From: a virus
IMG/VR virus record: IMGVR_UViG_3300025072_002582
Span: 1 to 56,896 of that record
Direction: 5' to 3' (one strand)
DNA: 56,896 nucleotides
The notes under the pieces were generated by a model. The model had not been told where the DNA came from and made no database searches. It saw only the letters and a list, made by a program, of their open reading frames with translations. Shown piece by piece: positions 3,001 to 56,793 of this stretch; position 1 is the stretch's first letter, and each line of letters opens with the position of its first letter. The translations under genes were made by a program, and so were the position numbers.

Positions 3001-4174
3001 TTCCAATATCTTCTGCATCAATAGCGAGGTCGCCATTCGCATCAAATCGATGTATAATCCCGGATTTATACCACTGCCAATCCATGGGATTTTCCCAAGA
3101 AGGAGCGTAACTCATGCTTTGCGTAACATCTTGAGTACTTAAAGCTTGTTCTATTGTTCTGAGCCTTGATGAAGAAGTGGTTGAATATTGGGTATCCCTC
3201 CAAAAACTTCTAATCAAGCCATGATTTCTATCATATCCATTTGAGCCGTAACCAGCGACTTCTTCATAATTTGGCTTTTCCAATTTATATTTGCGATAAG
3301 TATTAATACCGCGAGGATAAATTGTTTCATGAAAAATAAACCGGCCTGACCCCAAATCTTTTGCAGCGTGAAATAAAGAATATACTTTTTGATTATTAAC
3401 TGTATATCCTGCTGGAGGATTGGGCGCCGCATTTGAAAATTTTAAAAGATCATTTAAGTCATCATTAGAAAAATAAGTCATCTGATTAAACAAACTTTGT
3501 CTTGCTCTGGCTTGTTCAACTGTGCCCAAATTGCCCACATTAATTGGTACGTCATACAAAAAAGGCTTGTATTTTGATACAACTACTGGCTCATAAAATT
3601 GTTTTAGATCTTGTATGGACACACTACCGGAAAAGACTGTGGTATGAAAAGCTGGGCTACCTTCTGGACCATAATTGTCCATATTGACCGATTTAACGAT
3701 GTGCTTGGGATTGCGCCGATCAACTGACACCGTATTGCGCAATCTTTGGTATCTTGCAACGGGATGTTCACCGCCTCTAATCTGTTTCCACGTGGGATGC
3801 TGGTAAGGACCGTTGCGCTTTAGATTAATTGTATTTAGAATAGATGCCAAACCTGGGAGTCCAGAAGCCCAAGATCCAACGAAGGTGTTGGCGTCCGCGA
3901 CGACGGAGCCCACATTTGCATAATTAGTGTCCCCCGCGAAGGGTGTGAGCCCGGGGGTGAAAATTAAATCGCTATAGCCAAGAAAATTTTCTGAAGAAGT
4001 TATTGGTTCCTGTATACCCAAGTTTAAATTTGTAAAATTTGCAGCAGGAGAATAATCGTACTCAGGGTGTGCTGCAGCATAGTGAGGGGTGGCCGAGTGG
4101 AATTGCATACCGGCGACGTGTGCAATTAAAGACTCGCTCGCACTCACAAAATTTAATGTTTCATCTGTTGCCAT
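1..4174 (-). CDS. Giant virion structural protein, 3' end cut by window
   Basis: An open frame starts at an ATG at 4174 (MATDETLNFVSASESL...) and runs, wherever I checked it, without a stop to the first base, so at least 1390 residues are present and the C-terminus lies outside. I do not recognise the family. Visible pieces: an EF-hand-like loop (DANGDLAIDAEDI) near residues 373-386, a cysteine cluster near residues 490-512 (CHPGPACAPSC then IDCCGVGC), and around residues 980-1090 a jelly-roll-like segment ending in HWALDDILIRGE, the kind of ending seen in MAM-type domains. It is the last gene of the tail/baseplate block, 37 bases after the 2175-residue protein, which also carries concanavalin-like domains. 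An adhesive tail or fibre-like component is a reasonable inference, not a demonstrated role. Confidence 0.75.
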   Translation of the reverse strand, partial: MATDETLNFVSASESLIAHVAGMQFHSATPHYAAAHPEYDYSPAANFTNLNLGIQEPITSSENFLGYSDLIFTPGLTPFAGDTNYANVGSVVADANTFVGSWASGLPGLASILNTINLKRNGPYQHPTWKQIRGGEHPVARYQRLRNTVSVDRRNPKHIVKSVNMDNYGPEGSPAFHTTVFSGSVSIQDLKQFYEPVVVSKYKPFLYDVPINVGNLGTVEQARARQSLFNQMTYFSNDDLNDLLKFSNAAPNPPAGYTVNNQKVYSLFHAAKDLGSGRFIFHETIYPRGINTYRKYKLEKPNYEEVAGYGSNGYDRNHGLIRSFWRDTQYSTTSSSRLRTIEQALSTQDVTQSMSYAPSWENPMDWQWYKSGIIHRFDANGDLAIDAEDIGIWTSGSSFGENMTGAFGEGAQLWYWPNGIVMNQFTTAKCFAIDTTSSCGPVTPTAFGGTTWSFGHMKGYVQQDPYQPYQINLNSAWPLDAHVYDMTPSSSVCHPGPACAPSCIDCCGVGCISKPIWTWEYYTIGANADHIGLTPHASDLIIYPPDRGDSFTYWTSMHGGYTPEEQLWLSWNPENPNPRHFITRSAGELAYSTKPTIFFYRQTPLEVTQLVSVSASIWDPDWDDWTDTTGSMYGPIGYAAATASIQYLRHTYPYQSPWWVTNLVANRNPMFDTYADFIGNDLKYIARDYSILPEFRISEHFDYYDRYFRAYKSNGHIKVFTTAEAFDESLGRKVTRVKRNFGTQNNPFSPEIAHKLDFLTLHGVETTSSSDLVNLEAEDLTTTRYTYDDLGNLLEDPDNINNAKHYRNVGSNVVFNQKFVHTDDIKNFTYLIQNKGFNQDVVPGEISFECDSIKKLLPYEGFYPMTRTTQIGSYFKKAFEDYIAEGYSSTNSEVSAAPSHGLGLPAWDLLDADFSGSVLGIGNPIDASPTTGMFLVWDCQNVFEPFCNTSDNCIKYDTTANRWAACLSGNLSTEQDRWIQTAEKYKGTLEITYKYLTGGPITDLYDPTGLNLEVAEGGAGENLSLQYSEDGTTWSFLASHSPSLIPTASWNDATSSLTTDIPVYIRWHAYATSHTILGGAHSDHWALDDILIRGEPSAFNSLGAPSGQSLDSKNQAMMQSLLEPFFAPGLLYNSIKSGIAVDYPVYLKNAPVYYTSCMSASHAICIDHPDGMPDDLTLSTGSFGHGGYHMMGIANAMPAYLKSAPDYRMPFEALYDMNKLAKLHISDANKNPFANYLVSDFLWGSGSLYGAGNISEDSSVHVTALDSASLDYQPNVRLKQNPAYLDTTELNLYESAINNFLAETMEFYLEPYDKTINTKFPIIVSRPRHQLQATTPGFTYYMDLKLEMGVDQVMCEGPRRSNFIYSPNIPYAEGPLSSSLRGYLYGPPIEV
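49..109. repeat. Two copies of a 10-bp palindrome
   Basis: The palindrome GAGGGCCCTC occurs at 49-58 and again at 100-109. Both copies lie in the coding frame of the truncated structural gene, where they encode EGPL and EGPR. This may be simple coding repetition; no regulatory role is claimed. Confidence 0.4.
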
Positions 4175-4211
4175 TTTTTACCTTGGTCCTAACATATAAT
4201 TAGATTATACC

Positions 4212-47006: not shown

Positions 47007-47822
47007 ATGAAAAACTTTTATTTATCTCTTATTTTCCTATCTTTTCTGATAATAAATAGTTGTGCGATACAAACCAACACCCTAAAGAGTTTGGCGACTG
47101 CTAAAAAATCTTTTGTTAAAATAGAAACGCTAGTTAAATTTAAGGTCTGTGAAATAGAAGAAGATATTAATTCTTGTAATCCATATATGATGTTCTCTTC
47201 GGGTTCTGGTATGGTTATTCGTTACGGGAACAACAAGACTATTTTAACTGCCGCTCATGTGTGTAAATCTGACCAATTTACAGGAATGATGGGTCCGTTC
47301 GAAGGGAGCGAAATTATTTTACGGGCCATTGACCGAGAAAATAAAAAATTCTATGTTAATGTTATTAAATATGATGTAGATTTGGATATATGTTTATTGG
47401 ACGCGGAGCAATTGCCAGTTAGCGCGATCCGAATATCTTCAGTTAGGCCTGTATACGGAGATCGAGTTTATAATATAGCCGCTCCTGCAGGTATAGTAGA
47501 TGGAGAAATGGTGCCTTTATACGAGGGATTCTTTTTTGGTGAAAGCCAAAATCGAGCATTTTATAGCATCCCAGTTACCGGTGGGTCATCTGGTTCTCCT
47601 ATCTTAAATATTAAAGGAGAATTAGTTGGGATGATTCACTCTGTACATTATCGCTTCCACCACATCTCTTTATCGGCAACTTATAAAGATCTTTGGAATT
47701 TTTTATCTTTGCCACATAGTCGTACATCAAAATCCCAGAACAAGTGCCTACGTTCAGACTCCGAACAGAGCCTGCTTGAGGAATTTCGACCACCTGGTCC
47801 GCCAATTCTAAAACGTCATTAG
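47007..47822 (+). CDS. Trypsin-like serine protease, predicted lipoprotein (271 aa)
   Basis: This is the only clear plus-strand gene. Residues 1-19 are a signal peptide ending in a lipobox-like FLIINSC, so C19 may be lipidated. The catalytic triad is complete by motif: H84 (TAAHVC), D127 (DVDLDICLL) and S195 (TGGSSGSPIL). The conserved domain ends near residue 232; the last 38 residues are antisense to the RNA methyltransferase gene and look unstructured. No ribosome site is visible before the ATG, and the promoter is unclear (TATGATATAAT runs into the start codon). As a periplasmic or outer-membrane protease it could protect the infected cell or alter its surface; this is inference. Confidence 0.82.
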   Translation: MKNFYLSLIFLSFLIINSCAIQTNTLKSLATAKKSFVKIETLVKFKVCEIEEDINSCNPYMMFSSGSGMVIRYGNNKTILTAAHVCKSDQFTGMMGPFEGSEIILRAIDRENKKFYVNVIKYDVDLDICLLDAEQLPVSAIRISSVRPVYGDRVYNIAAPAGIVDGEMVPLYEGFFFGESQNRAFYSIPVTGGSSGSPILNIKGELVGMIHSVHYRFHHISLSATYKDLWNFLSLPHSRTSKSQNKCLRSDSEQSLLEEFRPPGPPILKRH

Positions 47823-48564: not shown

Positions 48565-49662
48565 TTACCAGTAGTTAAGACCCAAAATACCTTCTTCAGA
48601 AGAATAAAGACGATCCGAATTAAAACACTCTCCCAAATTAATCTTGTTGTCAGAAAAATGTACTTCTTCTAAAATATATGCGATGCCACTATAATTTGAT
48701 AATTTTTCATTCATATTACCATGAAGTCGTTTCATAATAAAAATTTGCATTTCCTCGCCACTGGCGAATTCATGAAGTTCACCTCCACTATAAACTGCAA
48801 AATGATTTAGTTTTTCCAAAACATCAACCTTATTAAGCACAAGATGGCTAACACCATTAATATTAATAGACTTAATTAGTCTATCAAGGTCCAGCCAATT
48901 ACATTGTCTAGGACGACCAGTTGTTGCGCCGTATTCTTCACCAATTTCTCTAACTTCATTAAAAATTTTATTATTTGGTTCAAAAGTCTTCGTGCCCACA
49001 TACGTATCGTAAACTTTTCCAACGCCCCAAACATTCCTGATCGCACGTGGCGATATGCTGTTAAGGAGCGCGCTGGCAGAAATGCAGTGGCTGGAAGTAA
49101 CATATGGATAGTCACCCCAGTCAATATCCAGCTCAAACCCTTGAGCGCCCTCACACAAAATTTTAACATCATTTTCATTATTAAAAAATTCCTCATAAAG
49201 ATCAATTAAAAATGGTTCTAATTCCAAAGCATCCTTTGCTTGCAAGCCGGTACGATTATATTTATTACGATAAGCTGGCCCATTGCCTTTTTTGGTTGTA
49301 CCAAGTTTTTCATCTTTGCCATCTTCACTCAGATGATCACTGGTAATAATGTGACAATTTTTAGCTATTTTAACCAATGATGTATCGATATCAGCTTTTC
49401 TTAGTTCTTCCAATTCTTCAAAGAAATGCTGAATATTCAATACACACCCGCTTCCAATAATACTTTTAACCCCATAAAAAACACCAGCTGGAATATAATG
49501 TGTTACAAATTTACGACCATTATGATAAATGGTATGACCAGCATTTCCGCCTCCGTTGAACCTTAATACATGCGTGTAGTCGCCTTCCGAACACAAATGA
49601 TGTGTTACCTTCCCCTTTGCTTCATCTCCATGTTGCAAGCCTACAACAATATCCGCAATCAT
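48565..49662 (-). CDS. Short adenylosuccinate synthetase family protein (PurA/PurZ type, 365 aa)
   Basis: PurA family: G12-D13-E14-A-K-G-K (catalytic Asp13 and P-loop), GGGNAGHT (37-44), GTTKKGNGPAY (121-131), CEGAQG then DYPYVTSSH, TTGRPRQ (247-253), and N277-K-V-D280, the base-recognition motif for GTP. At 365 residues it is shorter than bacterial PurA (about 430) and closer to archaeal PurA and phage PurZ. Asp13 is kept; the canonical PurZ enzymes that make 2-aminoadenylosuccinate have Ser there. The reaction is thus IMP (or possibly dGMP) plus aspartate plus GTP. No MazZ- or DatZ-like gene is seen in this window, so a diaminopurine genome cannot be claimed. Confidence 0.85.
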   Translation of the reverse strand: MIADIVVGLQHGDEAKGKVTHHLCSEGDYTHVLRFNGGGNAGHTIYHNGRKFVTHYIPAGVFYGVKSIIGSGCVLNIQHFFEELEELRKADIDTSLVKIAKNCHIITSDHLSEDGKDEKLGTTKKGNGPAYRNKYNRTGLQAKDALELEPFLIDLYEEFFNNENDVKILCEGAQGFELDIDWGDYPYVTSSHCISASALLNSISPRAIRNVWGVGKVYDTYVGTKTFEPNNKIFNEVREIGEEYGATTGRPRQCNWLDLDRLIKSININGVSHLVLNKVDVLEKLNHFAVYSGGELHEFASGEEMQIFIMKRLHGNMNEKLSNYSGIAYILEEVHFSDNKINLGECFNSDRLYSSEEGILGLNYW

Positions 49663-49902: not shown

Positions 49903-49982
49903 TGGTGGGACAGGTGGGGATCGAACCCACATGTAACCATTTACTCTTTCTACGCTTTATAAGAGCGAGGAGATACTATCCC
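49903..49982 (-). tRNA. tRNA-like gene with atypical core, anticodon unclear
   Basis: Minus strand: a 7-bp acceptor stem (GGGATAG with CTGTCCC, one G-U pair), discriminator A, encoded CCA, and a perfect T arm (GTGGG, loop TTCGATC, CCCAC). Only 43 bases lie between the TA after the acceptor and the T arm, and they do not make a normal D arm. Alternatives: an anticodon-like arm CGCT/AGCG with loop CTTATAA (anticodon UAU), or a CTCTT/AAGAG stem with a 12-base loop, followed by a GTAA/TTAC variable arm. It may be a degenerate or structurally reduced tRNA, or a tRNA-like RNA. CCA end is at 49903. Confidence 0.5.
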
Positions 49983-50022: not shown

Positions 50023-50193
50023 TCAGTCTAAAAGCAATTTTAGTTGCTTCTTTGTTTCGTTAACTAGATTACCCTCTTCTTTAAGCTCTTCGTATTGAAG
50101 ACGAGCTAAATGAGGATATTTTTCAAACAGTTGCGGTAGGGTCAAACATTCTTCTGTTTGAAGTTTTCTTATTTCGTTTGCGATTTTTCCCAC
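50023..50193 (-). CDS. Small helical protein, GTG start (56 aa)
   Basis: The frame MGKIANEIRKLQTEECLTLP... ending in KKQLKLLLD begins at a GTG at 50193 with GAAGGAAAAGAAGC just before it, and overlaps the last 71 bases of the 94-residue gene in another frame. The composition is that of a real helical protein (LARLQYEELKEEG). Its end contains an AAGCAA/TTGCTT hairpin at 50032-50049. Function unknown. Confidence 0.6.
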   Translation of the reverse strand: MGKIANEIRKLQTEECLTLPQLFEKYPHLARLQYEELKEEGNLVNETKKQLKLLLD

Positions 50194-50407
50194 GCTTCTT
50201 TTCCTTCTTTTCTTCGAAATCTGGATGTAACCTAGTTTTAACTACGAAGCGGCCCTGAGACAGGGCCCTTACTTTAACTTGCATACCTTTATGCTTCTCA
50301 TCTGCAGACCAAATTTCAATTAATCTATTTCTTTTTAGATCTGCTTCGTTGAAGCTGAGATGATATGATTCATTCTTCCAAAGTTTGCCAGTATTAGTAT
50401 CAGACAT
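50123..50407 (-). CDS. Small basic protein (94 aa)
   Basis: MSDTNTGKLWKNESYHLSFNEADL... has a folded N-terminal part (residues 1-65, KHKGMQVKVRALSQGRFVVKTRL) and a very basic end (EEKKEKKRGKNRKRNKKTSNRR). Its ATG overlaps the stop of the preceding 53-residue gene (TAATG). A nucleic-acid-binding role would fit the charge, but no family is recognised. Confidence 0.65.
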   Translation of the reverse strand: MSDTNTGKLWKNESYHLSFNEADLKRNRLIEIWSADEKHKGMQVKVRALSQGRFVVKTRLHPDFEEKKEKKRGKNRKRNKKTSNRRMFDPTATV

Positions 50408-50653: not shown

Positions 50654-52732
50654 TTATTTTTTAGATTCTTTAAGAATCTTTAATTTAATTGGTTTTTTAG
50701 ATTCAGACTTAATATTAGTCTTTTTCTTTTGTTCTTTGATAATTTTTAATTTAATTGGTTTTTTAGATTCTTCAAACCGTCGGCCACCGCCACCGCCACC
50801 GCTAGCGCCTGGCGGGCCTAGAGTACGTAGGGCCTCTCGCGTACCTGCGTGTGGTGATGAACTGCTTTCTGTTTCAGCTCCGGAACAATCCGGATTTCTA
50901 GATTTGCTTACATACCAAGAAAGTTCTCCCATTTCTTTAAGCCAATCACATGCACGCTCACCTGGGATTTTACGTACCTTCTTCCAAATTGGAATTTTAG
51001 TTCTAATACCGTCTTGTACACCTTCTTTCCAGCCGGTTATATCATAACCAAATGATTTTCCTAATTCGTCTTGTCTTGGGTCCATGGGGTCCCAATCCTT
51101 AAAGGATTCCATCGTACAAAAATATGGCATGCACTTCTTTTTAAGTACTTCTTTGTGTTCAGCACTTCCTTCTCGATAGCCTCCACCATGTTCATCACTC
51201 CAATCTACTGCAGAGTCTAAATCATCTGAATCGATTTCTTTATGTCGGCGAGTTGGGTCATTCTGTCCTTTGCCCCAGCCATTATTCCAAAGTGCATATT
51301 TGAAATGTAATTTTTTAAATTCTTTCTTGAAGTATGCAGCTGTAGTATGATCCATATAATCAACAACACTCATTATAGAGGACACTCCAATTCCGGCTGT
51401 CATAACAGTTTTTACTTCTTTTAAAAATTCTGGATGAGCTTCTCGTTCAACCATAGCTTTAAGATCCACTAGGGAAGTAGGCATTTCAATATTGTTTTGA
51501 TCAAAGATCATCGCCACATTGTCTCCAAAAAGTAGCTGAAGAACCCAATATATAATTTTTTGTAATAACTCAATTGGAAGTTTAGCCATGGCCATCCAGA
51601 AGTCGTCGTCGTCGTCAAACGCGGCCGCACCTGCCCACAATATTGTAATTATAACAGCTAAAAATGCCATTAATTTTACACCAAATTTTGTTACCTTTAC
51701 ACCCGAATCAGCTAGCCAAATAAATCTAGCTAGGAGTTTTTGTAGTGGTTTTCCACTATCTAATTTCAGTAAATGTTCTAAAAATTCAAGCGCCTTTCTT
51801 CTAGCAACCTTGTCTGACTCACCACTCTTAATAAGATCATCAAAAAACTGATCATATTTCTTTTTTTGTTTAGGCGACATACCCTCTTCGGCCGCAACTT
51901 GACGCTTTATGGCCGCCCGGCGAAAGGCTTTTTTCTCATCTAAATATTGTTGATATCTAGCCCGCTCACCGCCGGCCTCTAAATTTGCATTTCTTTTTTC
52001 TTTATTGCGTCTTTCCCGTGCTTTTTTCTCTTCCTTGGATTCTCCTTCTTTTCGTGACTCCGGAGCCTCATAATCAGGTGGGGTCCCCGATGGGCCCCCC
52101 GCTCCGCCTGGCCCTCCTGGATAAGATGGGGTTAATTCTGGCGTAACTCTTCCTCTGAATCTACGCCAATCTCTAAATTTTTGCATTAACGTTTTACTTT
52201 CCAAAGACCCAGGCTCTGGGAGGCGAATTACTCGTCGTTGTCGATTATTTATGTTCCACATGGGGTTGTCCCGAAAATATTCGGGAGCAGTATTCCAGAA
52301 ACGATCTATATCAAATGAATTTATTCGCATATGTGATTCAGGAATTCGAATTATGCCTTTTGTATCATGATGACCAATAGCCCAATTACCAGTTTTTTGA
52401 TTGTAAAATAATCTATCACCGGCATTATGATCAAACATCCCAGTATTTGCAAATGCATTATTAAACATATGATTTTGTTCTGGTGTTGCTGATACCCAAT
52501 TAGATTTAAATCGACGTCCCGTTCCCCGCGTCCGCGTAGCGCCGGCCGGCCGCCTTCGCGTGCGCACTATTTCACCAGAATTATCATCCCAACTAGACAA
52601 AATTCTGATCCAGTGCTCATCTTCCATGCCGAAAAATATTTTTTCGTAATCAGCTGCTGATGGTGTCCATTTTGGTAATTTGGCTTCTTTTAATAATTCA
52701 AATTCACGCCAATTTTCAAATAATTTTTTCAT
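50654..52732 (-). CDS. Leader-bearing virion-packaging candidate with TM segment (692 aa)
   Basis: Starts with the shared leader MKKLFENWREFELLKEAKL; L14-K15-E16 followed by Ala matches the L-x-E cut site of T4-type prohead proteases. Next is an Arg-rich stretch (RTRRRPAGATRTRGTGRRFK, residues about 57-76) encoded by unusually GC-rich DNA (52508-52572), then a Gly/Pro linker, a charged coiled region (EEKKARERRNKEKRN), a membrane segment near 347-370 (LMAFLAVIITILWAGAAAF) and an amphipathic helix (LLQKIIYWVLQLLFG). The C-terminus has a run of Gly and two copies of ESKKPIKLKI(I/L)KE. It fits an internal head protein delivered to the host membrane; that role is inference. Confidence 0.75.
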   Translation of the reverse strand: MKKLFENWREFELLKEAKLPKWTPSAADYEKIFFGMEDEHWIRILSSWDDNSGEIVRTRRRPAGATRTRGTGRRFKSNWVSATPEQNHMFNNAFANTGMFDHNAGDRLFYNQKTGNWAIGHHDTKGIIRIPESHMRINSFDIDRFWNTAPEYFRDNPMWNINNRQRRVIRLPEPGSLESKTLMQKFRDWRRFRGRVTPELTPSYPGGPGGAGGPSGTPPDYEAPESRKEGESKEEKKARERRNKEKRNANLEAGGERARYQQYLDEKKAFRRAAIKRQVAAEEGMSPKQKKKYDQFFDDLIKSGESDKVARRKALEFLEHLLKLDSGKPLQKLLARFIWLADSGVKVTKFGVKLMAFLAVIITILWAGAAAFDDDDDFWMAMAKLPIELLQKIIYWVLQLLFGDNVAMIFDQNNIEMPTSLVDLKAMVEREAHPEFLKEVKTVMTAGIGVSSIMSVVDYMDHTTAAYFKKEFKKLHFKYALWNNGWGKGQNDPTRRHKEIDSDDLDSAVDWSDEHGGGYREGSAEHKEVLKKKCMPYFCTMESFKDWDPMDPRQDELGKSFGYDITGWKEGVQDGIRTKIPIWKKVRKIPGERACDWLKEMGELSWYVSKSRNPDCSGAETESSSSPHAGTREALRTLGPPGASGGGGGGRRFEESKKPIKLKIIKEQKKKTNIKSESKKPIKLKILKESKK
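50679..50770. repeat. 26-bp direct repeats at the 692-aa gene's 3' end
   Basis: Bases 50679-50704 are identical to 50745-50770. They encode the repeated C-terminal motif KKPIKLKI of the 692-residue protein. Such repeats can expand or contract by slippage. Confidence 0.85.
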
Positions 52733-52803
52733 AAATAAATTCTCACATTATAAATAGTTATTATATTTTATAATAGCCTAACCTAGACTTAAACTAAATC
52801 AGG

Positions 52804-53100
52804 TCATGTTTCTTCAATTGGTTGAGCCAGCGGTCCATTTCCCGACCAAGCAGATTCATCTACTTCTTCTTTGGACACCTCATAAGTCAAACATTCACAT
52901 ATCCACTTACCTTCACTTGTTTGCGCAAAATCTAAATTAATTTTTTCAGCAACACATTGATAATTTTTATTAAAAATACAATCATGACATTCGCAGTGAC
53001 ATTCTACTTTTGGTATACTTTCTCTCTCTATACCAGGTCTAATAGGTACAATATTATCTTCTTTTAAGAATTTATTCCAATTTTCAAATAAATTTTTCAT
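52804..53100 (-). CDS. Leader-bearing cysteine-rich small protein, DUF1540-like (98 aa)
   Basis: The start MKNLFENWNKFLKEDN has the shared leader, with L12-K13-E14 as a candidate cut site. Residues 34-75 hold a cysteine cluster (VECHCECHDCIFNKNYQC, then CECLTYE) very like DUF1540 repeats (C-x-x-x-x-C-x-N-x4-C-x-A ... C-x-T), which probably bind a metal. GAGG lies upstream of the ATG at the end of the preceding gene. It may be a small injected protein. Confidence 0.72.
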   Translation of the reverse strand: MKNLFENWNKFLKEDNIVPIRPGIERESIPKVECHCECHDCIFNKNYQCVAEKINLDFAQTSEGKWICECLTYEVSKEEVDESAWSGNGPLAQPIEET

Positions 53101-53101
53101 T

Positions 53102-54706
53102 TTATGACCTCAGCAAAATTTTAATTTTGTAAGTAGATTGCTTATTTTCTCTTAGTAAATCTTCTAGTTTTTCACAATCAATAACATCACATATATCTAA
53201 TTCAAACATATCAAAAGTAACTGTTCTAGAAATTTCTTTTATTTTTTTTCTTATTCTTTCTACTACTTCTTTAAGCACTAGTTTTATTGCAGCTTCTTCG
53301 TCTCCCATAGCAACTAATACAATACATCTCATATATAGTGCACGATTTTCTTTCCAATTTTCTGGTAATAATTGTTTATATAGCCAATCAATAAGTATTT
53401 TTTCTTGTTTTTCGGTAAGTTGTAATTTTTCAATCCATTTTATTTTTAAATTTAAATTTTTTCCAGCCCAGAAGCCTATTAACCATTTGGCAAATTGTTT
53501 AAATATTTTTTCATGATAATGTTCTGGAAAGTCCATTACCATATCAAAACAAGGGCTTTCATACCAATTTTCGGCAGCACAATATTGATCAAAGAATTGT
53601 TTTATATAAATTAACACATGCTCTTTATACCCAGGAGCAAAAACATATATTCCGTCCTTTGTTATTTTAACTGCAGTTAATTCTGTAGGGTATGGTACTT
53701 TTCCTGTTGGTTCTGGTTTTACATATGTTGGATCTTCCGGCCCGGATTCTGGATCTGATATTAATTCTTCTAACGCTTTTATAATATTTTTATTGTGAAC
53801 TTCCATGGTGGCACCGGTTAAATACCCATGAATTTCACTAAATAAATCTATGTCCTCCTCTTCTCTTCCCTGACCTTTTCTATTATGAGTTTTACTAATT
53901 CTAAATAATGTATTAATTTCTTCGCTTTCAATTCCTCTTGCCATAATTCCACTTGTTGAAAAATCAAGCACATATGTATTTTTACCACCTTTCGGATGTG
54001 GAGCATGGCCCCCCGCACGATAATATGCCGTAAAACTTAATTTTTCTCCAGCTTTTATATATCCTTTTATTTCTTGTAAATTTCCATCTGATGTGGCATC
54101 ATCAGGTATCCATATAGAATTTTCATTTCCCATATAAGATCCAACTAAAGCATAATATTTGTTTTCTAAAGTTTCGAACGAGGGCAAGCTAATTAATAAT
54201 TCTTCTTCTGGTGTCAATGCACCATCTTCTTGCGGATTTTTAATTTTATCATTAATAAGATCAAAAGTATTAAGTACGGCACTAGGTACTTCTTTTGCAA
54301 ATTGTTTTGCTTCTTCACCTTGGTATACTATTTTTCCGGTTGATGTATGCAAAACATATACATTTTCAAACATATCAATTTCTTTTGAAGCATCGCGATA
54401 TATTGCCATGGCTTGTGGACGATCAAATTCATGCATGTGTTTTATTACATGACTTCTGCCAGCATGAGTCTTCCCACGCTTTGCGTATACTTCATCTGGA
54501 CTAAAAACAATAACATATTTACCCCAAGTCTTATTTGATTCTCTTCCTGATTTAGGAAGAGGTTTTATTTTATCAGTACCTGGCCTATCCTCATCGCTGG
54601 TATGAAAGAACATGTTGTCTCTTTCATCGCCCGCAAGATCTTGTTGAAGATCCTCATGCAATATTTCTTTTTGATATTTTCGCCAATTTTCAAATAGTTT
54701 CTTCAT
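53102..54706 (-). CDS. Leader-bearing protein of unknown activity (534 aa)
   Basis: Begins MKKLFENWRKYQKEILHEDL; L16-H17-E18 is the candidate cut site. The mature part is not recognised. Notable pieces: HAGRSHVIKHMHEFD near residue 82, TAYYRAGG followed 17 residues later by DFSTSG, and a helical C-terminal half. The R/STS pieces recall ADP-ribosyltransferases, but the spacing is too short and no clear E-x-E follows. Its first 27 coding bases and leader are nearly identical to those of the 359-residue gene upstream. Candidate injected protein; activity unknown. Confidence 0.7.
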   Translation of the reverse strand: MKKLFENWRKYQKEILHEDLQQDLAGDERDNMFFHTSDEDRPGTDKIKPLPKSGRESNKTWGKYVIVFSPDEVYAKRGKTHAGRSHVIKHMHEFDRPQAMAIYRDASKEIDMFENVYVLHTSTGKIVYQGEEAKQFAKEVPSAVLNTFDLINDKIKNPQEDGALTPEEELLISLPSFETLENKYYALVGSYMGNENSIWIPDDATSDGNLQEIKGYIKAGEKLSFTAYYRAGGHAPHPKGGKNTYVLDFSTSGIMARGIESEEINTLFRISKTHNRKGQGREEEDIDLFSEIHGYLTGATMEVHNKNIIKALEELISDPESGPEDPTYVKPEPTGKVPYPTELTAVKITKDGIYVFAPGYKEHVLIYIKQFFDQYCAAENWYESPCFDMVMDFPEHYHEKIFKQFAKWLIGFWAGKNLNLKIKWIEKLQLTEKQEKILIDWLYKQLLPENWKENRALYMRCIVLVAMGDEEAAIKLVLKEVVERIRKKIKEISRTVTFDMFELDICDVIDCEKLEDLLRENKQSTYKIKILLRS

Positions 54707-54727
54707 ATTATTAAATAGTTGGTGGAG
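54679..54727. repeat. 49-bp leader repeat, copy 1
   Basis: Differs from 55788-55836 at only two positions. It covers the start of the 534-residue gene and 21 bases upstream. The upstream part (minus strand CTCCACCAAC then TATTTAATAAT) contains no Shine-Dalgarno sequence. Confidence 0.95.
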
Positions 54728-54735
54728 ATAATAGA

Positions 54736-55815
54736 TTAATCTAAAATACGAATAGCAATACTATCTATATTTATTGATCCTGTGGCTAATATTTCTTTTT
54801 CATTTTTTAGAAATCTGCGTAGCCAAGAGCCCATCTCTTTATCAATTTCAGTAGATGACCTTGTGGCGCCCTGGAGAGTGCTTTCAATATCTATGAGATT
54901 ATCCACTTTTTTTCCGTCTACAATATACATTACTTGTATACGTGATGAGCTAGTTTGTTTATAAAGTGGGTTTGCAGCAAATGTCTCGGCTATATCAATT
55001 TTTTTTGAAAAAGACATTGCTCCAATTTTGTTTTTAGGTTTTAATACTAAATTTTCAATAGGTAATTCAATAAAATCATCGGCAGTTCGGCCAAACCAAC
55101 CTTTATGCATAGGATCTTTTTTTGCCCTATTCAGCCAAAATAAAATATCGTTCTTTATTCCGCTTGGTAAATCTAAACGCTGAGCTAGTTCTTCAAGAGT
55201 GTTGAAACCCTCGCCGCGATAGGCATCCTTTTTCCATAACGAACTCAGCGAATTAGCAGCTTTTTTTAACTTATCAAGATTTGTTATTGGCCTTATCGGT
55301 TTCAATATCGTTGCGCCTGTCTTGTCAGCAGCTTTTCCTCCCGTAGCCCAATCAATCAAACCTTTTAATTCTTTTTCTGCTGAAGCCACCGCATCGTCAA
55401 TTTTAGAGGCTAATTTCTCATATTGCGGCGCGCCCTTCATTGCAGCAGAGGTCTCTTCTGCTGTTTTAATAACTTGTTTTGTTTTGCTTAATTTTTCAGC
55501 TGCAGTAAGACCTTTAAAATGAGGAATGCTAGCCAATAATGCTAAGGCAGCAGCACCGGCATTTTGTAAAGATGGGTTATCAGTAAATGTTTGCATAGCT
55601 CCTTTAAATTCAGGAATGGCTAAAGGAGGAATTCCAATCGATAATATTTGTCGACCAAGATCGACCAATTCAGCGCATTGAGGATATTTTTTTGCATCGC
55701 ATTTAAGCTTGTCGAGAGTATGTCCTTGTTCCTGATAGCCTATTGCATCAGTAGTAAATTGTTCATTTAAGATATCTTTTTTAAATCTTCGCCAATTCTC
55801 AAACAGTTTCTTCAT
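54736..55815 (-). CDS. Leader-bearing ADP-ribosyltransferase, Alt-like effector (359 aa)
   Basis: The start at 55815 gives MKKLFENWRRFKKDILNEQF, with L16-N17-E18 as a candidate cut site; a longer frame to 55863 is rejected. The C-terminal half is an R-S-E class mono-ADP-ribosyltransferase: R200 in DAYRGEG, S268-F-S270 in GAMSFSKKIDIAETFA, and E339-K-E341 in NEKEILATGSINID. The three motifs are in the right order and the order of spacing expected. In T4, Alt is packaged with the head after its leader is cut and modifies host RNA polymerase on injection. Residues 80-180 are Ala-rich helices. Activity and target here are predictions. Confidence 0.85.
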   Translation of the reverse strand: MKKLFENWRRFKKDILNEQFTTDAIGYQEQGHTLDKLKCDAKKYPQCAELVDLGRQILSIGIPPLAIPEFKGAMQTFTDNPSLQNAGAAALALLASIPHFKGLTAAEKLSKTKQVIKTAEETSAAMKGAPQYEKLASKIDDAVASAEKELKGLIDWATGGKAADKTGATILKPIRPITNLDKLKKAANSLSSLWKKDAYRGEGFNTLEELAQRLDLPSGIKNDILFWLNRAKKDPMHKGWFGRTADDFIELPIENLVLKPKNKIGAMSFSKKIDIAETFAANPLYKQTSSSRIQVMYIVDGKKVDNLIDIESTLQGATRSSTEIDKEMGSWLRRFLKNEKEILATGSINIDSIAIRILD

Positions 55816-55836
55816 ATTATTAAATAGTTGGTGGAG
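55788..55836. repeat. 49-bp leader repeat, copy 2
   Basis: Near-identical partner of 54679-54727. It covers the start of the ADP-ribosyltransferase gene. Its upstream sequence CTCCACCAAC is also found at the 3' end of the tmRNA gene (56441-56450 region). Confidence 0.95.
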
Positions 55837-55837
55837 G

Positions 55838-56386
55838 TTACATATTTTTAGATACTGCCTCACAAAACAATTTTACTTCATTATCTGAAAAACTGTTTCT
55901 ACAATAATTAGCTATTATCGCGATAAAACGTACGTTTCCCTTAACATAACCTTTTAAGTTATCGATGCGATCGAGAGAAGCTCTTTTTGGTCTATTGCTG
56001 TCTCTTTTCCAGTCGCTACTATGAAATGGCAATTCTAATTTCCACCCAGTAAACGGACAGATTCCAGATTGAGCTTCCCACAAATTACTTAAATATTCCA
56101 AATCGACATCAAAATCTTTGCCTTTTTCTTTTTTCCTTCTTTTAATAACTCTCATAAACCATTTAAACGGCGAATAATCATCACGACGATTAGCGGGATT
56201 CAAATGTTCTGTGAATCTTTTTCCACCATTTTGATAATATTCATCAAAGTTTTTCGTATTATTAGTTCCGGAGCATTTTCTAGAACAGAAACTAGGTCTT
56301 CCAAGTTTTTTACTTCTATTATATTCTCCCCTACTTCTTTCGAATTTTTTATTACAAATTCCACATTCTAAAATAATAACTGTCAA
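55838..56386 (-). CDS. HNH endonuclease with N-terminal zinc ribbon (182 aa)
   Basis: The N-terminus has a zinc-binding pattern (LECGICNKKF ... PSFCSRKCSG). The C-terminal part is an HNH-type nuclease of the variant in which CPFTGWKLEL, then RASLDRIDNLKGYVKGNVRFIAIIAN, carry the metal and catalytic residues (D-R-I-D ... N). The AGGAGG ribosome site at 56394-56399 is 1 base from a GTG but 7 bases from a TTG at 56386, so TTG is the more likely start. It lies directly after the tmRNA gene. A free-standing homing endonuclease or a packaging nuclease is possible. Confidence 0.8.
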   Translation of the reverse strand: MTVIILECGICNKKFERSRGEYNRSKKLGRPSFCSRKCSGTNNTKNFDEYYQNGGKRFTEHLNPANRRDDYSPFKWFMRVIKRRKKEKGKDFDVDLEYLSNLWEAQSGICPFTGWKLELPFHSSDWKRDSNRPKRASLDRIDNLKGYVKGNVRFIAIIANYCRNSFSDNEVKLFCEAVSKNM

Positions 56387-56444
56387 TTCCACACCTCCTA
56401 TAATAAATAGCTAGAAAGTATGGAATTGGACAGTTTTTTTATGT

Positions 56445-56793
56445 TGGTGGAGATGTCGACGATTCGAACGTCGAGTCCTGCCGCACTTCTAATACAACGT
56501 CATTCACAAGGTTAGTCAGTTTATGAACTCTGACAAACTCGCACCGCGCACCACCAAGTTTGTCCTGTGGGCCTTACTTGGAAAAACCCTTTACATCTAC
56601 TTTCCGAAGAAAACCATCGATGAACAGTCTTTGGTTAATAAGGCTCTCGTTATTCCCCATGACTACGCCGCTAGGGCGTAATCAAACTCAACGTTATCGT
56701 TGGCGTTTAAAGTTTGAGTGTTTTTTACTGTGCCACACTCACACAGCCTTGCACGCTATATTTTCAATACTCAGTCGATACCAGTTCACCCCC
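56445..56793 (-). ncRNA. ssrA: tmRNA (ssrA), phage-encoded
   Basis: A complete one-piece tmRNA of 349 bases. The 5' end GGGGGTG pairs with CATCTCC at the 3' end, followed by A and an encoded CCA. The 5' domain has CTGGTATCGAC (family consensus GG-TTCGAC), followed by the GTGCAAGGC region and PK1-like complementarity (CTGTG/CACAG and GAGTGT/ACACTC). The tag frame runs 56704-56663: GCC AAC GAT ... giving ANDNVEFDYALAA and TAG. The 3' part has AACTGACTAA and a T arm CGACG-TTCGAAT-CGTCG. It starts 3 bases after the stop of a protein gene, so it may be co-transcribed and processed. Together with SmpB it would rescue stalled ribosomes and tag the peptide for ClpXP. Confidence 0.95.
56663..56704 (-). 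other. tmRNA degradation-tag frame
   Basis: The 13 codons encode ANDNVEFDYALAA, followed by TAG. The resume codon GCC follows CTTTAAAC. The tail YALAA is the classical ClpX recognition end. The family adds an uncoded Ala first. Confidence 0.92.

What the first reader, a model, noticed from the sequence alone, without database searches (positions are those of the whole stretch)
56445..56793. A complete phage tmRNA gene with a 13-residue tag
Seen: both ends pair, CCA is encoded, the tRNA-like half and PK1 are recognisable, and a tag frame reads ANDNVEFDYALAA then stop. Known: tmRNA rescues stalled ribosomes and tags proteins for ClpXP; phage-borne copies are known but uncommon. Inference: the phage supplies its own rescue RNA, possibly because host mRNA is degraded late in infection. 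The tag keeps YALAA, so tagged proteins should still go to host ClpX.
Basis: partly seen in the sequence, partly recalled or inferred. Interest (0 to 1): 0.82.

Follow-up and report, generated by a model that had tools for sequence, protein, structure and literature searches.

The report
Phage tmRNA gene invaded by homing endonuclease
A real ribosome-rescue RNA (tmRNA) gene sits at the end of this uncultivated phage fragment, but its last 40 or so bases have been swapped by a selfish DNA-cutting gene (an HNH endonuclease) parked right behind it, and related phages show that such insertions at the tmRNA gene have happened repeatedly.

Summary
The tmRNA is real: RF00023, 93 bits, E 5.9e-35, full length at 56793..56445 (minus); tag ANDNVEFDYALAA. 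It belongs to a family of phage tmRNAs (56 distinct copies compared) with invariant G3-U70 and covarying acceptor and PK1. None of 28 phage records tested carries SmpB. The exact tag core was not found in 84,980 bacterial and archaeal species genomes.
Compared with the 93%-identical sister (L027), the last 42 nt are replaced; the T-stem has 6 bp against 5 in all others measured; ARAGORN misses it. An HNH endonuclease follows 52 bp on, and after its stop lies the old tmRNA end (CCTCCACCA plus the sister's 16-nt leader). HNH relatives (L051, L098/L142, L099) also sit exactly behind tmRNAs, with altered T-arms and RBS-hiding hairpins; L100 keeps a decayed scar. Displaced tmRNA ends recur only 0.2-2.5 kb downstream, mostly before genes with capsid-targeting-like N-termini; many start at T-loop position 57/58.
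Best reading: a free-standing HNH homing endonuclease targets the tmRNA T-arm and inserts while supplying a replacement 3' end. It works like T4 SegB but is a different nuclease class. Cleavage is inferred. Ordinary as a phage tmRNA; new variant as a homing element.

The parts
56445..56793 (-). one-piece (non-permuted) tmRNA gene, 349 nt
   Evidence: RF00023 93 bits, E 5.9e-35; family-wide acceptor and PK1 covariation
56663..56704 (-). tag reading frame ANDNVEFDYALAA and stop
   Evidence: conserved in relatives
56715..56746 (-). pseudoknot PK1 (CTGTG/CACAG and TGAGTGT/ACACTCA)
   Evidence: both stems in 56 of 56 distinct tmRNAs, with compensatory changes
56445..56486 (-). replaced 3' end of the tmRNA (42 nt, after ..GTATTAGAA), differing from the 93% identical sister L027
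   Evidence: alignment; sequences
56456..56474 (-). T-arm with a 6-bp stem TCGACG-TTCGAAT-CGTCGA
   Evidence: the only 6-bp T-stem among the 63 tabulated copies; T-arm type absent from 57 non-carriers
56379..56434 (-). hairpin hiding the Shine-Dalgarno and start of the endonuclease gene, with a CTATTTATTA motif (56401-56410) in its loop
   Evidence: -29.5 kcal/mol; same architecture in L052, L068, L076
55838..56392 (-). HNH endonuclease gene, 184 aa from GTG; start more likely TTG at 56386 by comparison with the ATG at that codon in L051, L098 and L099
   Evidence: phrog_3322 endonuclease 8.5e-25; relatives directly behind tmRNAs
55829..55837 (-). displaced old tmRNA 3' end CCTCCACCA, directly after the HNH stop codon
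   Evidence: 25-nt match to the sister's tmRNA/gene junction
55813..55828 (-). leader ACTATTTAATAATATG of the next gene, same as in sister phages directly behind their tmRNA
54720..54729 (-). second displaced tmRNA-end-like sequence ATCTCCACCA with the same leader
54736..55815 (-). gene of the variable island, N-terminus MKKLFENWRRFKKDILNE (capsid-targeting-like)
   Evidence: function inferred from N-terminus only
53102..54706 (-). gene of the variable island, N-terminus MKKLFENWRKYQKEILHE

Best explanation
The window carries a phage-borne, one-piece tmRNA meant to work with host SmpB, alanyl-tRNA synthetase and proteases. Its 3' end has been invaded by a free-standing HNH homing-type endonuclease element. 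The proposed mechanism: the HNH protein cuts or nicks the conserved T-arm of tmRNA genes lacking the element in co-infecting phages; repair copies the element in; the element supplies a replacement tmRNA 3' end with an altered T-arm, so the RNA stays foldable and the site is no longer cut; the old 3' end is left behind the element. Translation of the endonuclease from read-through transcripts is hidden by an RBS hairpin and probably released by a late promoter inside the hairpin. Shown: the tmRNA, the replaced end, the displaced end, the same association in other phages, the hairpins. Inferred: cleavage, homing, immunity of the altered site, late promoter, and that this copy is functional.
For: tmRNA: RF00023 at 93 bits; G3-U70 in 56/56, acceptor pairs 5 and 6 and PK1 covary. 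Element: empty site in sister L007/L027, where the tmRNA runs straight into the next gene; in the window the HNH lies between and the sister's junction reappears after its stop. Relatives: L051 (72% aa), L098/L142 (54%) and L099 (54%) all directly behind tmRNAs; all HNH loci the profile search returned in IMG/VR are tmRNA neighbours. L098 and L142, from different metagenomes, show the same junctions. L100 holds a decayed element plus displaced end. T-arms of 5/5 carriers are absent among 57 non-carriers, while 4/57 non-carriers have singleton types. Hairpins of -29.5 to -38.7 kcal/mol hide the RBS in all four elements with that region held; the same arrangement is known for I-TevI, segB, mobE (PMC2988022). 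SegB's cleavage motif RAWTSGAAC (PMC13096335) is the reverse complement of GTTCSAWTY, the T-loop consensus (my observation). No group I intron, no tyrosine or serine recombinase in 18 records.
Against: No cleavage data. Some relatives are fragments. In the window the displaced piece is only 9 nt of tmRNA plus the leader, and the same leader occurs once more upstream of another gene, so leader recombination could have produced it. Carriers share ancestry, so the T-arm test is not independent. The window's 3' end has more changes than homing needs. The HNH family is not exclusive to tmRNA: crAss-like phage relatives (33-44%) exist, and the one inspected is not beside a tmRNA or tRNA.
Confidence: 0.68

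Rival explanations
1. The displaced tmRNA ends come from recombination between the shared leaders of capsid-targeting-like genes that happen to begin with the tmRNA 3' end; the HNH gene is a passenger in a gene-exchange hotspot.
For: Leaders with tmRNA ends recur before several such genes; L098 and L101, with 99.7% identical flanks, differ in cassette content; the window's second copy has no HNH.
Against: About 6 of 11 displaced ends begin at T-loop position 57/58, more than random breakpoints would give (not corrected for copying); the changed T-arms go with the HNH; L100 is a decayed element with a displaced end.
Confidence: 0.27
2. Plain phage tmRNA with an unrelated neighbouring endonuclease; the odd 3' end is drift.
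For: HNH genes are common in phages; the RNA still folds.
Against: HNH relatives sit at the same spot in at least three other phages; the body is 93% identical to the sister while the last 42 nt are replaced; the displaced end is present.
Confidence: 0.05
3. This copy is a dying tmRNA: the swap of the 3' end broke it and the phage lives without it.
For: 6-bp T-stem, part of P2 re-paired with G-U and a bulge, lowest RF00023 score of the full-length copies, missed by ARAGORN.
Against: Acceptor, G3-U70, CCA, PK1 and tag intact; all 6 T-stem pairs are standard; cofold energy -39.8 kcal/mol lies inside the family range.
Confidence: 0.2
4. Host ssrA at the edge of an integrated prophage, not a phage gene.
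For: ssrA is a common attachment site; the gene lies near the contig end.
Against: Relatives sit inside contigs of up to 190 kb with phage genes on both sides; no integrase in 18 records; exact tag core absent from genome contigs.
Confidence: 0.02

Closest known systems
tmRNA / ssrA (RF00023), including phage-borne copies (Bxz1, Wildcat, phage G; Karimac; permuted copies in marine phages such as Melnitz)
   Same: tRNA-like end with G3-U70, PK1, alanine resume codon, tag ending ALAA, one-piece order
   Different: 6-bp T-stem and replaced 3' end; tag core not seen in the bacterial genomes held; followed by an HNH element (the 5 kb around the Karimac tmRNA, shows none)
T4/T6 SegB, free-standing homing endonuclease of tRNA regions
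   Same: sits next to tRNA-type genes; RBS hairpin with late promoter (PMC2988022); SegB cleavage motif corresponds to the T-loop (PMC13096335), which is where many displaced ends here begin; SegB drives segmental amplification
   Different: SegB is GIY-YIG, this is HNH; the target is tmRNA; here the element carries a replacement 3' end of the target gene and leaves the old end behind
Group I introns in the tmRNA T-loop (with LAGLIDADG genes in 23 of 844, PMC11915505)
   Same: same place in the gene, mobile element with endonuclease
   Different: no intron RNA found by Rfam; the gene is rebuilt at DNA level instead of by splicing
Genomic islands and prophages integrated at ssrA
   Same: element carries a replacement ssrA 3' end and displaces the old one
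   Different: the element is little more than one nuclease gene inside a phage genome; no integrase found
phrog_3322 / endonuclease VII-like HNH proteins, incl. crAss-like phage endonucleases
   Same: HNH homologues, 33-44% identity
   Different: the crAss-like copy inspected is not beside a tmRNA or tRNA

Membership tests
tmRNA (RF00023) | covariance-model match over the gathering score, full length | tested here: met
   93 against 47 bits, model 1-374
tmRNA (RF00023) | alanine acceptor with G3-U70 and tRNA-like T-loop closed by G-C | tested here: met
   the T-stem has 6 bp rather than the usual 5, a deviation in size, not in kind
tmRNA (RF00023) | PK1 before a resume codon and an open tag frame ending in a hydrophobic degron and stop | tested here: met
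tmRNA (RF00023) | trans-translation with SmpB | not testable with these tools
   no SmpB in the phage records; host unknown
permuted (two-piece) tmRNA RF04321 | acceptor 3' half upstream of the tag half | tested here: not met
   47.9 bits by overlap with the tag half only; the order of parts is the standard one
free-standing HNH homing endonuclease | homology to HNH endonucleases | tested here: met
   phrog_3322 8.5e-25; no Pfam match over cut-off; AlphaFold model too poor to use (pLDDT 47)
free-standing HNH homing endonuclease | empty site in a close relative, and flanking sequence changed in carriers | tested here: met
   sister L007 empty; carrier T-arms 5/5 absent in 57 non-carriers
free-standing HNH homing endonuclease | site-specific cleavage and biased inheritance | not testable with these tools
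   needs enzyme assay and co-infection
T4-type homing endonuclease regulation | RBS hidden in a hairpin, late promoter within | tested here: inconclusive
   hairpins in four elements; promoter motif only inferred (20/24 genes against 8% background by a loose motif; weak enrichment in the whole window)
group I intron in tmRNA T-loop | intron RNA structure | tested here: not met
   no Rfam intron match even at relaxed thresholds
SegB family | GIY-YIG nuclease | tested here: not met
   the protein matches HNH/endonuclease VII-type families only
integrase-type genomic island at ssrA | tyrosine or serine integrase with the element | tested here: not met
   PF00589 and PF00239 absent in 18 records; several records are fragments

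The most novel reading that the evidence does not exclude
The T-loop of a phage tmRNA gene acts as a repeated entry door: HNH-driven breaks let gene cassettes, mostly for proteins with capsid-targeting-like N-termini, enter one after another, each bringing a new tmRNA 3' end and leaving the old one as a fossil, so that the rescue RNA is kept working while the phage builds an array of putative injected proteins behind it.
Probability: 0.33. Interest if true: 0.82.

Novelty: new variant of a known kind. Interest (0 to 1): 0.6.

Why it matters
Free-standing homing endonucleases are known in tRNA regions of T4-like phages, and group I introns and integrated islands are known in ssrA. I found no report of a free-standing endonuclease using a phage tmRNA gene, rebuilding its 3' end and leaving displaced ends behind (the paper searches, cover an open-access library only). 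If true, it explains why one phage tmRNA escapes a standard gene finder, gives a DNA-level alternative to introns for living inside an RNA gene, and gives a way to read past insertions near phage tmRNAs. The repeated displaced ends would make the growth of a variable island of putatively packaged proteins traceable. Both the cleavage and the function of the tmRNA with a 6-bp T-stem are testable with small in vitro experiments.

Tried and rejected
Permuted tmRNA: RF04321 overlaps only the tag half. Host ssrA or prophage edge: rejected. Group I intron: none. Donor of the window's T-arm: no exact copy in IMG/VR. HNH leader pattern: only L052. Host by shared tag: exact core 0 hits; a looser ANDNV[ED] pattern gave alphaproteobacterial, delta/myxococcal, Chitinophagales and Oscillospiraceae tags but none alike, so the host stays unknown. 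AlphaFold of the HNH protein: too poor. PDB profile search: one weak match to a PPR protein, not informative. Idea that the new 3' end destroys P2: folding shows it re-pairs with a bulge, so weakened. Idea that the junctions always form the stop codon of the gene before them: true in some copies only.

Full report
OBSERVATION. The tag reads ANDNVEFDYALAA. The weak permuted-tmRNA match (47.9 bits, cut-off 47) overlaps only the tag half; the order of parts is that of a one-piece tmRNA. ARAGORN reports nothing.

THE FAMILY. A tag pattern gave 22 viral contigs and a PK1 pattern 55 stretches, some of them in the first set. All 22 of the first set and 42 of 44 further records carry a tmRNA over the family cut-off. 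Sixty-three copies were tabulated. In 56 distinct sequences all seven acceptor pairs are standard; G3-U70, the alanine identity pair, is invariant; pairs 5 and 6 and the second PK1 stem show compensatory changes. Tags vary (ANDNV[ESATG]FDYALAA, AND[DN][VI]E[IN]FED[FY]ALAA and others) but end in -AA. So these RNAs are under selection as tmRNAs. The tag counts are biased by the tag pattern used in the first search; the acceptor and T-arm were not used to find the loci. No SmpB gene was found in 28 records of up to 190 kb, so host SmpB would be needed. The exact tag core was not found in 84,980 species genomes, and the host is unknown. The window encodes T4-like baseplate proteins, PhoH and a late-sigma-like factor, so it is a large myovirus-like phage.

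The closest relative, L027 (in L007), is 93% identical along the tmRNA, but the last 42 nt differ: sister ..GTATTAGAAATATTCAGGACCCGGGTTCGACTCCCGGCACCTCCACCA, window ..GTATTAGAAGTGCGGCAGGACTCGACGTTCGAATCGTCGACATCTCCACCA. The window T-stem has 6 pairs; every other copy in which a T-loop was found has 5 (L060, with an inverted-looking T-loop, could not be scored). The new end still pairs: acceptor 7/7, T-stem 6/6, and P2 re-forms with G-U pairs and a bulge; the cofold energy (-39.8) lies within the family range (-29.3 to -47.9), though weaker than the sister's -46.9.

THE HNH ELEMENT. In the sister the tmRNA runs directly into the next gene..CACCTCCACCAACTATTTAATAATATG. In the window an HNH endonuclease gene (phrog_3322, E 8.5e-25) lies between. 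Directly after its TAA stop comes CCTCCACCAACTATTTAATAATATG, the sister's junction. The insertion is therefore bounded by a replaced tmRNA end on one side and the old end on the other.

OTHER CASES. A search with the HNH protein found L051, 72% identical, directly behind a tmRNA. A profile of four sequences found only loci behind tmRNA genes: L051, L142, L143, L144; L143 is the contig of L098 and L144 that of L099. In L098 and L142, from different metagenomes, the tmRNA is followed by the element, a second small gene, and then TGACTCCCGCCACCTCCACCAACTTTTC, the 3' half of a tmRNA from T-loop position 57 on. L100 has the same left end as L098, a decayed interior and a displaced end. All five carriers have T-arm sequences not present in 57 non-carriers, 4 of which are singletons themselves (Fisher 1.9e-5, not corrected for shared ancestry).

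DISPLACED ENDS RECUR. A 25-base pattern of the tmRNA end plus its flank, searched over whole contigs with 3 mismatches, gave 10 extra copies in 5 records (two of them, G039 and G067, likely the same phage type), all 174-2504 nt downstream of the tmRNA on its strand, and none with the reversed control pattern. L053 alone has five by a shorter pattern. Most stand before genes whose products begin like MKLIMENWRKFLKE or MKKLFENWR; I read these as capsid-targeting or prohead-protease propeptides, by analogy with T4 internal proteins; this is inference. About 6 of 11 distinct displaced ends begin at T-loop position 57/58. Two close records, L098 and L101, differ in cassette content between near-identical flanks.

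MECHANISM. The anatomy fits homing: empty site in the sister, changed flank in carriers, endonuclease gene next to its presumed target, and decay after fixation. The four elements whose leader is held have a strong hairpin hiding the Shine-Dalgarno and start (-29.5, -36.6, -37.9, -38.7 kcal/mol), with a CTATTTAWTA-type motif in the loop that also stands before most capsid-targeting-like genes. T4 I-TevI, segB and Aeh1 mobE use this arrangement, a late promoter inside an RBS-hiding hairpin (PMC2988022). T6 SegB, a tRNA-associated homing endonuclease, prefers RAWTSGAAC and drives segmental amplification (PMC13096335); that motif is the reverse complement of GTTCSAWTY, the T-loop consensus, which I did not find stated in that paper and note as my own reading. 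Cutting of the T-loop by the HNH protein is an inference from this and from the breakpoints.

ALTERNATIVES. Leader recombination between cassettes explains some copies and may act together with homing (27%). A broken window tmRNA is possible (20% as a statement about this copy; it does not exclude the element). An intron, an integrase-borne island and a host gene were tested and are not supported. The probabilities given to the rivals are not exclusive.

VERDICT. As a phage tmRNA this is a new member of a known kind. The tmRNA-borne HNH element with a gene-rebuilding 3' end is a new variant of free-standing homing endonucleases. The array idea is the most novel reading not excluded.

Noticed in passing
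L101:1393-1410 (tmRNA L060): The T-loop looks inverted (GCGGGAGTCGGAGCCCGC instead of GCGGGTTCGACTCCCGC) in a tmRNA 96% identical to the HNH carrier L068; it could be a repair scar of a T-arm break or an assembly error.
   Followed up: partly
window 48565-49662 minus: Adenylosuccinate-synthetase-like gene matching the PurZ-type PHROG (phrog_1211, 1.5e-67): possible 2-aminoadenine (Z) DNA or purine metabolism.
   Followed up: no
window 50654-55815 minus: Four genes with N-termini like MKKLFENWR..K.E between the tmRNA and a conserved 94-aa gene (50123-50407); the same interval is filled by different genes in L027, L055 and L084 and has none of this type in L063: a hypervariable island of putatively packaged proteins.
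   Followed up: partly
window 49906-49982 minus: tRNA-like Rfam match (31.2 bits, cut-off 29) with a long insertion, not seen by ARAGORN; similar weak matches in relatives.
   Followed up: no
L148:1254-3578: Capsid-targeting-like N-terminus followed by a thioredoxin-like domain ([20 protein letters not shown]).
   Followed up: no
L096:3289-3386 and 4033-4190: RAGATH-20 and RAGATH-9 RNAs near the crAss-like phage HNH relative.
   Followed up: no
window 47007-47822 plus: Trypsin-like protease with a lipoprotein-like start, on the opposite strand to its neighbours.
   Followed up: no
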